From: Chitinispirillales bacterium | GTDB taxonomy: Bacteria; Fibrobacterota; Chitinivibrionia; Chitinivibrionales; Chitinispirillaceae | DNA: 64,000 nucleotides | Assembly: GCA_031254105.1 (NCBI GenBank) | Contig: JAIRVB010000036.1 | Span: 1-64,000, forward strand | Direction: 5' to 3' | Shown: positions 2,889-6,934 of the stretch, piece after piece | How positions within the stretch are numbered: the first letter of the stretch is position 1 | How the letters are laid out: the number at the start of each line of letters is the position of its first letter | Notes under the pieces: model-generated | What the model was told of the DNA's origin: nothing | Database searches by the model: none | Seen by the model: only the letters and a program-made list of their open reading frames with translations | Translations under genes and position numbers: made by a program

Positions 2889-4991
2889 ATGAGTTTCGAA
2901 AAGCTGCTCAGACCTGAATCAGTGGCGGTTGTCGGCGCGTCTACACAGCCCGGCAAGGTTGGATACGAGATTCTTAACAATGTCATCAGCGATGGATTTA
3001 CGGGGCCTGTTTATCCGATTAACCCAGGAGCTGCCGAGATCCTGGGAAAAAAGTGTTATAAGAGTCTCACCGATGTGCCCGGTCCGGTTGATCTGGCTGT
3101 TGTGGTAATCAAGCGCGGTCTTGTTATTCCTACGCTCAAAGAGATGGGTGAAAAAGGCACTAAGGCCGCTATTGTTATTACAGCTGGATTCGGCGAAACG
3201 GGTGAAGAGGGTAAGAAGCTTCAGGCGGAGATGATTGAAGTCGTAAAAAAGTATGGAATCACCATGGTCGGCCCCAACTGTCTTGGCTTGCTTAATCCGT
3301 GGCATAAGCTTAACGCCTCATTTGGCGGTACGGCAGGGGTCCCCGGCGGGATCGCTCTTATATCGCAGTCCGGCGCGCTTCTTACTTCGGTGCAGGACAT
3401 CGCCGCGCAGGAGAAGCTTGGATGGTCGGTTCTCGCTTCTATAGGAAATAAAGCCACACTTGATGAGGTTAATTTCTTAGAAGGTCTCAAAAACGATAAA
3501 AATACAAAAGTTATAGCCGCGTATCTTGAAAACATCACCCACGGACGGGATTTTATCCGTGAGGCTGAAACTGTAAGTAAGGAGAAGCCTATCGTTATCC
3601 TCAAGGCGGGACGTACAAGTTCCGGCGCGAAGGCCGCGTCTTCACACACCGGAAGCTTAGCCGGCGCGGATAGCGCTTACATGGCCGCGTTTGACAGGGT
3701 AGGGGTCATCCGCGCGGATTCTATAGAACAACTTTTTGATATATCGATGGCGTTTTCATACATGCCGCTTCCGGCAGGAGACCGGGTCGCGGTTGTAACT
3801 AACGCTGGCGGTCCCGGCATAATGATGTCCGACGCTCTTGAGATGCTTGGATTAAAGGTTGCGGCGCTTGATAAAGCCACTGAGGATAAGCTTCTCGCGA
3901 CTCTCCCGGCCGCGGGTTCCGCTCATAATCCGGTAGACGTTCTGGGTGACGCGACAAGTGATATGTACGGCAAGGCTATGGATATTATTATTGAAAGTCC
4001 ATCTGTTGACAGCATGATAGTTGTTCTTACGCCGCAGAAAATGACAGATGAAGATAATGTCGCGCTCAAAATTGTAGAACTCTCTAAAAAGTACAATAAA
4101 CCGATTTTCGCGTGTTTCATGGGAGCGGGCAGCATTGTTAAGGGTGTCGGTATCTTGCGTGATAATAAGATTCCTCAGTACGGCGTTCCTGAGCGCGCGG
4201 CTAAGGCGATGCTTGAGATGGTAAAATACAGCAATTACAGAAAGCGGGCCGCCCGTGTTATAAAAACATTTGATGTTGATAAAAAGAAAGTTGCCGGTAT
4301 TATCGCTCAGTACCGCGCTGACGGAATGAATGAGATCGGTGAGGTTGACGCTAAAGAGATTATGCGCGCTTACAAGTTTAATGTTCCGGGCGGTAAGCTT
4401 GCGTCAACGGCAAAAGAGGCCGGTCAGTTCACAGATGAGCTTGGGTATCCTGTAGTTATGAAGATTTCAAGCCCCGACATTCTGCACAAGTCAGATTCAG
4501 GCGGCGTGAAAGTCGGTCTTGCCAATCGCGCTGAGGTTGAGAACGCTTTTGAGAAGATGATGGTAACTGTAAAGGAAAGGGTTCCGGGCGCGGACATCAA
4601 GGGTGTGCTTCTTGAAAAGATGATCGGCAGCAAGGATGACCGTGAGGTTATTGTTGGCATGAACAAGGATCCGCAGTTTGGCCCGATGATCATGTTTGGT
4701 CTTGGCGGTATTTTTGTTGAGGTGCTGAAGGATGTATGCTTCGGCTTAGCCCCTCTTACGGAGGAGGAAGCTATGAAGATGATTCAGAGCACTAAAGCAT
4801 ATAAACTTCTTACCGGAGCGCGCGGTTCAAAGCCCAATGATATCGGCGCTATAGTTGAGAATCTCCAGCGCATCTCTCAGCTTGTCACCGACTTCGAGGA
4901 GATCGCTGAGATTGATATAAATCCGCTGAAGGTCGGGGCGGAAGGGGCTGGGGCTACGCTTCTTGACGCGAGGATAATCCTTACGAAGTAG
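2889..4991 (+). CDS. ADP-forming acetyl/acyl-CoA synthetase, fused alpha-beta form
   Basis: 700 residues, the usual length for the fused alpha-beta enzyme. It converts acyl-CoA, ADP and phosphate to the acid, CoA and ATP, so it makes ATP by substrate-level phosphorylation at the end of fermentation. Residues 1-130 are a CoA-binding Rossmann domain (VAVVGAST..., MVGPNCLGL). Next comes the succinyl-CoA-ligase-like domain with the phosphorylated His in SSHTGSLAG (His253). From about residue 475 there is an ATP-grasp domain (GYPVVMKI..., HKSDSGGVKVGL, DINPL near the end). An AAAAAAGG leader precedes the ATG and an intrinsic terminator follows. Together with the Por operon at 19145-23214 it implies pyruvate to acetyl-CoA to acetate plus ATP. 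Acetyl as main substrate is inferred; branched or aryl acids are possible. Confidence 0.9.
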   Translation: MSFEKLLRPESVAVVGASTQPGKVGYEILNNVISDGFTGPVYPINPGAAEILGKKCYKSLTDVPGPVDLAVVVIKRGLVIPTLKEMGEKGTKAAIVITAGFGETGEEGKKLQAEMIEVVKKYGITMVGPNCLGLLNPWHKLNASFGGTAGVPGGIALISQSGALLTSVQDIAAQEKLGWSVLASIGNKATLDEVNFLEGLKNDKNTKVIAAYLENITHGRDFIREAETVSKEKPIVILKAGRTSSGAKAASSHTGSLAGADSAYMAAFDRVGVIRADSIEQLFDISMAFSYMPLPAGDRVAVVTNAGGPGIMMSDALEMLGLKVAALDKATEDKLLATLPAAGSAHNPVDVLGDATSDMYGKAMDIIIESPSVDSMIVVLTPQKMTDEDNVALKIVELSKKYNKPIFACFMGAGSIVKGVGILRDNKIPQYGVPERAAKAMLEMVKYSNYRKRAARVIKTFDVDKKKVAGIIAQYRADGMNEIGEVDAKEIMRAYKFNVPGGKLASTAKEAGQFTDELGYPVVMKISSPDILHKSDSGGVKVGLANRAEVENAFEKMMVTVKERVPGADIKGVLLEKMIGSKDDREVIVGMNKDPQFGPMIMFGLGGIFVEVLKDVCFGLAPLTEEEAMKMIQSTKAYKLLTGARGSKPNDIGAIVENLQRISQLVTDFEEIAEIDINPLKVGAEGAGATLLDARIILTK

Positions 4992-5213: not shown

Positions 5214-6164
5214 ATGATAATAGCCAACCCGATTTACGACGCGACTTTCAAGCGGCTTTTGGAAAATGACCGCACCGCAAAGTTTTTCATTGGAACTATT
5301 CTCAATTGTAAGGTACTTTCTCTTGAGCCGGCTATCCGTGAACATACTAAATTCGATAAGGATACCGGAAAACTTACGCTCTTCCGCATGGATTTCGCCG
5401 CGACCATAAAAACCAAAGAGGATGGCGAAAAACGAGTGATTATTGAGATGCAAAAAGCTATGCACCTTGCCGATGTTACCCGTTTCAGAGAGTATCTTGG
5501 TACGGAATATATCAAATCGGAACTTCCCATTATATCAATATATATATTAGGATTTAACTTGTCGGTGGATTCTCCGGCATTTGGCAATGTCCCTGTTTAC
5601 CGTGATTTACGGACTAATGAACAGCTTCATCCCTATGACGATTTTGTCGAACAACTGACCCACAGCGCCTATTTTGTCCAAACGCAGAGGATACGTTCGA
5701 GTCTGAATACAAAACTTGACAGACTGCTTTCGGTGTTTGAGCAGGCCAATTTTATAGGCGGCAGCGAAACAACGAAAAGTTATAATCTTGCGGTTGATGA
5801 TCCTGAAATCAAGGCGATATTAGAAGTCCTTAATTACGTAGCAGCCGATGCGCAGGCTCGTGAGGAATTAGACAAGGAGGAATATTATCGGAAAGCGATG
5901 GAAGGGATGTTCGGGAAGCAGAATAAAAAAATAGAACTGCTGTCACTTGAAATAGCCGAATCAAAACAGGAAACCGAAAAAACCAAACAGGAAATTCAGG
6001 AAGCCAAACAGGAAATAGCAAAAGCGAAACAACGCGAAGAAGAAGCGGTGAAAAATCTTTTTGATAAAGGATTTTCGGCTGAGGAGATTGCCGCGATACT
6101 TAATATTAATGTTGAAACGGTTGGGGATGGGAAATTAATGGGGCTTGACGCAGGGAACGGCTGA
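5214..6164 (+). CDS. Rpn family recombination-promoting nuclease / PD-(D/E)XK transposase-like protein
   Basis: 316 residues. The N-terminus NPIYDATFKRLLEND is the typical opening of this family. FRMDFAATI (Asp60) and VIIEMQKA (Glu78, Gln80) form the PD-(D/E)XK-type catalytic core (ExQ variant). Residues about 230-285 are a lysine/glutamate coiled coil with repeated KQE units. A short helix-turn-helix-like tail (GFSAEEIAAILNINVETV) follows. Family members are proposed to be DNA nucleases promoting RecA-independent recombination. Its stop overlaps the next start in ATGA (6162-6166), so the FISUMP gene is translationally coupled to it. A decayed relative lies at 38655-39450. Confidence 0.82.
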   Translation: MIIANPIYDATFKRLLENDRTAKFFIGTILNCKVLSLEPAIREHTKFDKDTGKLTLFRMDFAATIKTKEDGEKRVIIEMQKAMHLADVTRFREYLGTEYIKSELPIISIYILGFNLSVDSPAFGNVPVYRDLRTNEQLHPYDDFVEQLTHSAYFVQTQRIRSSLNTKLDRLLSVFEQANFIGGSETTKSYNLAVDDPEIKAILEVLNYVAADAQAREELDKEEYYRKAMEGMFGKQNKKIELLSLEIAESKQETEKTKQEIQEAKQEIAKAKQREEEAVKNLFDKGFSAEEIAAILNINVETVGDGKLMGLDAGNG

Positions 6165-6868
6165 TGAATGTTCCCTTTTTTAAATATTTGAAATCAGAAT
6201 GGTTGTGTACTTTTAGTGATTTGATTTTTGTTTGTGTGGTAGTTTTGTCGTTTGTGTTGGTTTGGTACGGGAATAATGGCGGTGACTTTACAGATGTTAG
6301 AGACGGGAAGAAATATAAGACGGTAAAAATGCCTGATGGTAAGAGGTGGATGGCGGAGAATTTGAATTATCAACCATCAACAGGTAATTCTTGGTGTTAT
6401 AATAATAGTGCTGATTCCTGTTCCAAATACGGCAGATTGTACGATTGGGCGGCGGCTATGAATATCGAATCATCCTACAATAGCACAGAATGGGGTGGCA
6501 GTGATGTAAACCATCAGGGAGTTTGTCCTGCTGGTTGGCATTTGCTTTCGGATACAGAGTGGGACGCTTTGGTAGATGCAGTTGGTAGTTTAGCGGGTAG
6601 AAAACTCAAGTCTACATCGGGGTGGTATGATAATGGTAACGGTACAGATGATTATGGTTTCTCGGCGTTGCCTGGCGGCTACCGCAGCTCCAGTGGCAAT
6701 TTCTGGGATGCCGGCGGCAGCTACGGCCGCTGGTGGACGGCCACGGAGCGCTCGGGCTCGCATGCGTACTACCGGTACATGTACTGCAACGGCAAGAACG
6801 TGGACTGGTTCACCGGCGTTAAGGGCCTCGGGTTTTCTGTGAGGTGTGCTCAGGACGTGCGCCAGTAG
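6164..6868 (+). CDS. membrane-anchored FISUMP-domain protein, candidate DGR target
   Basis: 234 residues. Residues about 18-36 form one membrane helix (FVCVVVLSFVLVW), so the domain is probably displayed outside the membrane. Residues 42-230 are a FISUMP domain (Fibrobacter succinogenes major paralogous domain) with the hallmarks MPDGKRWMAENLNY, YGRLYDWAAAM, CPAGWHLLSDTEWD, GFSALPGGYR, WWTATE and GFSVRC. FISUMP domains belong to the C-type-lectin/formylglycine-enzyme-like fold. The base composition changes abruptly inside the gene: up to about residue 165 codons mostly end in A or T, while for residues 171-223, 48 of 53 codons end in G or C. This matches a copied variable region. The gene starts in an ATGA overlap with the nuclease gene. 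Ligand unknown. Confidence 0.8.
   Translation: MNVPFFKYLKSEWLCTFSDLIFVCVVVLSFVLVWYGNNGGDFTDVRDGKKYKTVKMPDGKRWMAENLNYQPSTGNSWCYNNSADSCSKYGRLYDWAAAMNIESSYNSTEWGGSDVNHQGVCPAGWHLLSDTEWDALVDAVGSLAGRKLKSTSGWYDNGNGTDDYGFSALPGGYRSSSGNFWDAGGSYGRWWTATERSGSHAYYRYMYCNGKNVDWFTGVKGLGFSVRCAQDVRQ
6659..6847 (+). other. candidate variable region (VR) of a diversity-generating retroelement
   Basis: This covers residues 166-228 of the FISUMP protein, from GFSALPGG to GFSVRC. Fixed scaffold positions (GG, WW, TATE, GFSVRC) alternate with positions whose codons are nearly all NNC: CGC, AGC, TCC, GGC, TAC, TGC, AAC, GAC, TTC, ACC. NNC codons are what adenine-directed mutagenesis of AAC template codons produces. 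It lies at the extreme 3' end of the gene in a C-type-lectin-like fold, the usual place for a VR, and is followed by hairpins. No reverse transcriptase or template repeat is visible in the window, so this is a candidate only. Confidence 0.5.
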
Positions 6869-6901
6869 GTGCATAATATATAGTTTGGTGTATTGGCACC
6901 T
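6867..6901. repeat. inverted repeat immediately after the FISUMP gene
   Basis: AGGTGC (6867-6872, overlapping the stop codon) pairs with GCACCT (6896-6901) around a 23-base AT-rich loop. It lies between the candidate variable region and the terminator. Confidence 0.4.
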
Positions 6902-6905
6902 CCCC

Positions 6906-6934
6906 AAGGCCGTTCTCCACCAACGGCCTTTTTT
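6906..6934 (+). terminator. intrinsic terminator after the FISUMP gene
   Basis: AAGGCCGTT (6906-6914) pairs with AACGGCCTT (6922-6930) around a 7-base loop, and the stem runs into six T. Strong Rho-independent form. Confidence 0.85.

What the first reader, a model, noticed from the sequence alone, without database searches (positions are those of the whole stretch)
6659..6847. Candidate diversity-generating-retroelement variable region in a FISUMP surface protein
The C-terminal 60 residues of a membrane-anchored FISUMP (C-type-lectin-like fold) protein switch sharply to NNC/NNG codons: 48 of 53 codons at residues 171-223 end in G or C, while the upstream half mostly ends in A or T. Scaffold positions stay fixed (GG, WW, TATE, GFSVRC), while positions between them read as AGC, GGC, TAC, CGC, GAC, TTC, TGC and ACC, exactly what adenine mutagenesis of AAC template codons yields. 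The location at the gene's 3' end followed by hairpins also fits. No reverse transcriptase or template is visible in the window, so the element would act in trans. Alternative: gene conversion among FISUMP paralogues of different composition.
Basis: partly seen in the sequence, partly recalled or inferred. Interest (0 to 1): 0.88.

Follow-up and report, generated by a model that had tools for sequence, protein, structure and literature searches.

The report
Orphan hypermutated tail of lectin-like protein
The odd-looking end of this bacterial surface-type protein is very probably a stretch once rewritten at random by a natural protein-diversifying retroelement, whose matching template is missing from this genome, while sister loci here and in relatives show the same mechanism clearly and reveal small stand-alone template genes.

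Summary
In detail: 48 of 53 codons at residues 171-223 end in G/C against 66 of 170 before, and the best change point is nt 6659. The mechanism is right in kind. A FISUMP diversity-generating retroelement (DGR) has worked in this lineage. Contig C37 of the same genome holds an AAC-rich non-coding template; 25 of 27 differences to the FISUMP gene next to it, and 21 of 23 to one on C48, lie at template adenines. In same-genus G001 the template sits in an avd-TR-RT cassette with a remote target (22/23 at A). The window's own region matches no template closely: against the best, 27 of 51 A but also 20 of 135 non-A positions differ. The genome's only reverse transcriptase belongs to a different DGR (HRDC accessory, FGE-sulfatase target), and avd is reduced to remnants. 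So the window region is most likely an orphan, now frozen, DGR variable region. Extra finding: four genomes carry stand-alone template modules lacking avd and RT but keeping a covarying RNA structure; in two of them the VRs differ from the template essentially at A only.

The parts
6164..6868 (+). FISUMP-domain protein, 234 aa, N-terminal predicted membrane helix (residues 17-36), target gene
6659..6856 (+). variable region (VR): template-homologous 3' end from FSALPGG to ..RCAQD
   Evidence: GC3 change point at nt 6659; homology to template repeats of C37 and of relatives
6867..6901 (+). imperfect inverted repeat AGGTGC...GCACCT just after the stop, in the place where hairpins follow the VRs of C37, C48, C15 and G019
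   Evidence: read from sequence; hairpins after the other VRs
6906..6934 (+). terminator-like hairpin AAGGCCGTT/AACGGCCTT with T-run
   Evidence: read from sequence
5214..6164 (+). upstream ORF, 316 aa, resembles Rpn/PD-(D/E)XK transposase-like proteins only by eye; its stop overlaps the FISUMP start by one base (TGATG), so possibly translationally coupled
   Evidence: no family at E<=0.001

Best explanation
Window 6659-6856 is a DGR variable region in a FISUMP (C-type-lectin-like) protein. It was shaped by earlier rounds of mutagenic retrohoming by an avd-TR-RT type DGR whose templates encode FISUMP tails: template RNA is copied with random bases at adenines and the cDNA replaces the gene's 3' end. 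In this genome the matching template is absent and the avd/RT cassette survives only as remnants, so the region is most likely an orphan that is now inherited without further DGR mutagenesis. Shown: adenine-directed differences at sister loci, the cassette in relatives, and the remnants. Inferred: that this particular region was made by a sister template now lost or unassembled, and that it is frozen.
For: Template on C37 against its VRs: 25/27 and 21/23 differences at A. Same-genus G001: avd-TR-RT cassette and remote VR 22/23 at A. G019: three VRs with 25/25, 32/32 and 23/23 differences at A over the shared 187 positions. G015: 19/19. Window VR against the best of four templates: A 27/51, non-A 20/135, p = 3e-7, whereas FISUMP paralogues without a composition jump, such as L010 and L021, give p = 0.5-1.0. 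The composition jump falls at the template boundary and has the same size as in the proven VRs. Remnants in the own genome: avd 3' end before the C37 template (alignment score 90 against a shuffled maximum of 34), avd 5' end (18 aa) after the C15 VR, avd 3' end after the C48 VR. No second RT.
Against: No cognate template was found, so the adenine bias is measured only against cousin templates, where non-A differences (15%) show divergence. A shared pattern of variable sites in the fold could mimic part of the bias. Genomes are drafts; a template or RT could sit in an assembly gap. No strain comparison was possible. No avd remnant lies next to the window gene.
Confidence: 0.72

Rival explanations
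1. The region is a live remote target: a cognate template and the avd/RT exist in the cell but fell into assembly gaps, or the HRDC-type RT on C19 serves it in trans.
For: A DGR RT with the IGxxxSQ signature (PIGNLTSQ), an HRDC partner and its own FGE template/VR pair (19/21 at A) is present on C19. Draft assemblies often break at such repeats. The two VRs of the C37 template differ from it almost only at A.
Against: The assembly is rated 100% complete, and searches with the VR, the template and the whole 411-base module found one template only. The C37 template lacks 13 nt that both of its VRs have, so it cannot be in productive use as assembled. The flanks of the FGE template and of the FISUMP template look different by eye.
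Confidence: 0.2
2. Ordinary paralogue divergence or gene conversion between FISUMP copies of different base composition, with no retroelement involved for this gene.
For: Fourteen FISUMP matches in the genome provide partners; the window tail has 20 of 135 non-A differences to the best template.
Against: The tail keeps third-position C/T at 17 of 19 template AAY codons while positions 1-2 change in 16. The adenine excess has p = 3e-7 and is absent from several other paralogues. Proven DGR tails have the same composition jump.
Confidence: 0.08

Closest known systems
Fib_succ_major (FISUMP) proteins as DGR targets in human gut metagenomes (Ye 2014, PMC4159848)
   Same: Same domain carrying the variable region at its C-terminal end
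   Different: There found in human gut metagenomes; here in Chitinispirillales-type Fibrobacterota genomes with targets away from the RT and an orphan VR
Bordetella phage BPP-1 DGR (avd-TR-brt; PMC12875486)
   Same: Order avd-TR-RT in G001, G019 and G095; TR-RNA bounded by the avd 3' end and a structured 3' stretch; hairpin after the VR
   Different: Long avd-like protein (248-272 aa) with only sub-threshold matches to bAvd/23S_rRNA_IVP; short terminator-like hairpin between TR and RT; FISUMP target; stand-alone templates without avd and RT
Incomplete DGR loci acting in trans in Thiohalocapsa PB-PSB1 (PMC10907252) and VR-only DGR fragments in Nanoarchaeota (PMC4372165)
   Same: Loci missing the RT yet carrying adenine-directed changes; fossil versus remote use is the same open question
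   Different: Here the incomplete loci include template modules of constant outline, seen in four genomes, with a conserved covarying RNA structure
HRDC-type DGR of Treponema denticola (PMC4891356)
   Same: HRDC accessory next to the RT, as in the C19 cassette of this genome; leftover target genes after DGR loss
   Different: The C19 target is an FGE-sulfatase protein, and this RT is not shown to serve FISUMP templates

Membership tests
DGR variable region (window 6659-6856) | near-identical template repeat in the genome differing almost only at template adenines | tested here: not met
   Best own-genome template (C37): A 27/51 but non-A 22/129 differ; no better one. So it is called a probable former VR, not a proven member
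DGR variable region (window 6659-6856) | 3' end of a gene with a C-type-lectin-like ligand-binding fold | tested here: inconclusive
   FISUMP domain, tail at the 3' end. Model pLDDT 81, but the fold search gave no match at E<=0.001; weak hits include C-type lectins and 4eps
DGR variable region (window 6659-6856) | hairpin downstream of the variable region | tested here: inconclusive
   6867-6901 (imperfect) and 6906-6934 (terminator-like), read from sequence; no fold test was run, and the second may be only a terminator
FISUMP DGR (template C37 with VRs on C37 and C48) | adenine-directed differences between template and variable region | tested here: met
   25/27 and 21/23
FISUMP DGR (template C37 with VRs on C37 and C48) | cognate DGR RT and accessory protein in the genome | tested here: not met
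   Only the HRDC/FGE-type RT on C19; avd-type RT not found and avd only as remnants
FISUMP DGR in relatives G001 and G095 | avd-TR-RT cassette with adenine-directed changes in the target | tested here: met
   Cassettes. VR against cassette template: G001 22/23 at A, G095 15/15 in cis
DGR, activity | mutagenic retrohoming observed, or variation between strains | not testable with these tools
   One genome per species; no reads and no metagenome scans available

The most novel reading that the evidence does not exclude
Fibrobacterota of the Chitinispirillales type carry a family of non-autonomous DGR template genes: units of about 400-470 bp that keep the avd 3' end, a structured 5' domain, the FISUMP template and a terminator-like hairpin but have lost avd and RT, and that diversify several dispersed FISUMP genes in trans.
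Probability: 0.5. Interest if true: 0.65.

Novelty: new variant of a known kind. Interest (0 to 1): 0.5.

Why it matters
It shows that single-locus DGR searches, which need an RT next to the target, miss a dispersed repertoire: the RT, the template and the many FISUMP targets lie on different contigs. The stand-alone template modules suggest which RNA parts a DGR template needs to work away from its RT, with covariation evidence that could be tested directly. The window gene itself is a likely case of what happens after the machinery is lost: a hypermutated binding surface kept as an ordinary gene.

Tried and rejected
(1) A template for the window tail in its own genome: searched with the VR, with the C37 template and with the whole 411-base module; none. 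(2) The FGE template on C19 as template for FISUMP: different domain and sequence. (3) L008/L023 on C27 as a template: low in A, a truncated FISUMP tail, so a VR remnant. (4) PD-(D/E)XK genes as part of the system: about 19 in the genome, neighbourhood not tested beyond a few cases, so left as a remark. (5) Rfam: no known family in the modules. (6) Structure comparison by sequence profile and by fold: nothing significant. (7) Naming the own species: its record was not among the genome-contig hits.

Full report
Observation. The FISUMP gene at 6164-6868 (+) is real (TIGR02145 1.2e-49; PF09603 5e-25). The switch to G/C-ending codons is real and sharp: 48 of 53 codons at residues 171-223 against 66 of 170 before, Fisher p = 6e-12, best change point at nt 6659. 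Other FISUMP tails of the same genome serve as controls: 0.85 in the two genes that prove to have a template (C37, C48), 0.78 and 0.67 in two others, 0.50-0.62 in six.

Template in the genome. A search of the window's own assembly (3.68 Mb, 56 contigs) with the tail gave, besides FISUMP paralogues, a non-coding AAC-rich copy on C37 about 300 bases downstream of a FISUMP gene. Aligned to that gene's tail, 25 of 27 differences lie at template A (51 of 182 positions are A); aligned to the tail on C48, 21 of 23. This is the adenine-directed pattern of a DGR. The template as assembled lacks 13 nt that both tails have, which would shift the frame.

The window tail. Against the C37 template it differs at 27 of 51 A but also at 22 of 129 other positions; against the best of four templates, from relative G019, 27 of 51 A and 20 of 135 non-A, p = 3e-7. 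Some paralogues without a composition jump give no bias (L010 p = 0.53, L021 p = 1.0); two others are intermediate (L016 p = 0.008, L020 p = 0.02). 17 of 19 codons facing template AAY codons keep a third-position C/T and 16 change at positions 1-2. So the tail looks like the product of a sister template that is not in the assembly. The bias test uses a cousin template and cannot be as clean as a cognate one.

Machinery. The own genome has one RT, on C19: FGE-sulfatase target, HRDC protein, RT (357 aa, motif PIGNLTSQ), template; 19 of 21 template/VR differences at A. It is a separate DGR. In the same-genus genome G001 the FISUMP template lies between an avd-like gene (272 aa) and an RT (387-aa ORF that includes the template end); a FISUMP gene on another contig (L099) is its target, 22 of 23 differences at A. 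The same gene order is seen in G019 C131 and G095 C136. The two RT types share about 30-33% identity. Calling the accessory gene avd-like rests on its position and on sub-threshold matches to bAvd/23S_rRNA_IVP. That IGxxxSQ marks DGR-type RTs is from my own knowledge.

Remnants in the own genome. Before the C37 template lies the 3' end of avd (alignment score 90, best of 500 shuffles 34) and after it the hairpin, but no RT. The C15 FISUMP tail is followed by the first 18 codons of avd. The C48 tail is followed by an avd 3' fragment. Nothing of the kind follows the window tail.

Stand-alone template modules. The C37 outline recurs in G019 C118, G021 C224 and G015 C123: avd 3' remnant starting near GGGC(A/G)GA, a 5' domain, the template, a terminator-like hairpin with TTATTTT, and no avd or RT next to it. 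In G019 three tails on three contigs differ from the C118 template by 25, 32 and 23 changes, all at A, over the shared 187 positions; over a slightly longer stretch two non-A changes appear in each. In G015 one tail differs by 19, all at A. G019 also holds an avd-TR-RT cassette on another contig. The six aligned modules and cassettes (A1) support a common RNA structure: 52 pairs, 95.8% of cells paired, 18 pairs with changes on both sides, 0 of 500 shuffles as high, and about 50% of cells paired when slid by one column. It includes a long-range stem CAGTCC (5' flank) with GGACTG (template 3' end). The structure was derived from the same six sequences, which favours it over the slid versions. 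In BPP-1 the template RNA is bounded by the avd 3' end and a structured 3' spacer (PMC12875486), so the modules keep what a template RNA is expected to need. RVT_1 was not found in the G015 and G021 assemblies; these are incomplete drafts.

Interpretation. Most likely: a FISUMP DGR of the avd-TR-RT type diversified several genes of this genome in the past; it has decayed, and the window gene is an orphan variable region. Less likely: it is still served by a template and RT that were not assembled, or by the C19 RT. FISUMP as a DGR target is known (PMC4159848), as are remote targets (PMC7517822), incomplete loci with trans use (PMC10907252), VR-only fragments (PMC4372165) and DGR loss leaving targets behind (PMC4891356). 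The literature search found nothing on stand-alone structured template modules or on DGRs of Chitinispirillales, but covers open papers only.

Limits. All genomes used are drafts, apparently metagenome bins, and VRs are places where assemblers mix strains. An origin from termite guts is my inference from related record names and is not shown.

Noticed in passing
G000:C19 (L024 7695-10673; L009): Complete HRDC-type DGR with an FGE-sulfatase target; its VR has a 5-nt insertion relative to the template that shifts the reading frame of the target's C-terminus (real damage or an assembly mix of strains).
   Followed up: partly
L090, L164, L165, L182 (stand-alone template modules): Structured template RNA modules without avd/RT, not in Rfam, conserved in four genomes.
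   Followed up: yes
L172 321-470 (G019 C131): An internally deleted avd (first 13-17 codons joined to its 3' end) lies upstream of an intact avd-TR-RT cassette, suggesting how the stand-alone modules arise.
   Followed up: partly
L087 and L097 (G095): avd-TR-RT cassette with a VR at the contig end (15/15 differences at A) and a remote FISUMP gene.
   Followed up: partly
L085 (G006, same family): Another DGR: TR 6063-6185 against VR 4437-4577, 24 of 24 differences at A; the target looks FGE-sulfatase-like by eye.
   Followed up: no
window 5214-6164; L024 6084-7010; L090 966-1745: PD-(D/E)XK transposase-like ORFs sit beside several DGR parts (only L024 6084-7010 confirmed by Pfam); the genome has about 19 such genes, so this may be chance.
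   Followed up: partly
genomes G010, G015, G019, G022 (genus g10): Very many FISUMP tails per genome (up to 71 first-look candidates), suggesting a large dispersed repertoire of variable regions.
   Followed up: no
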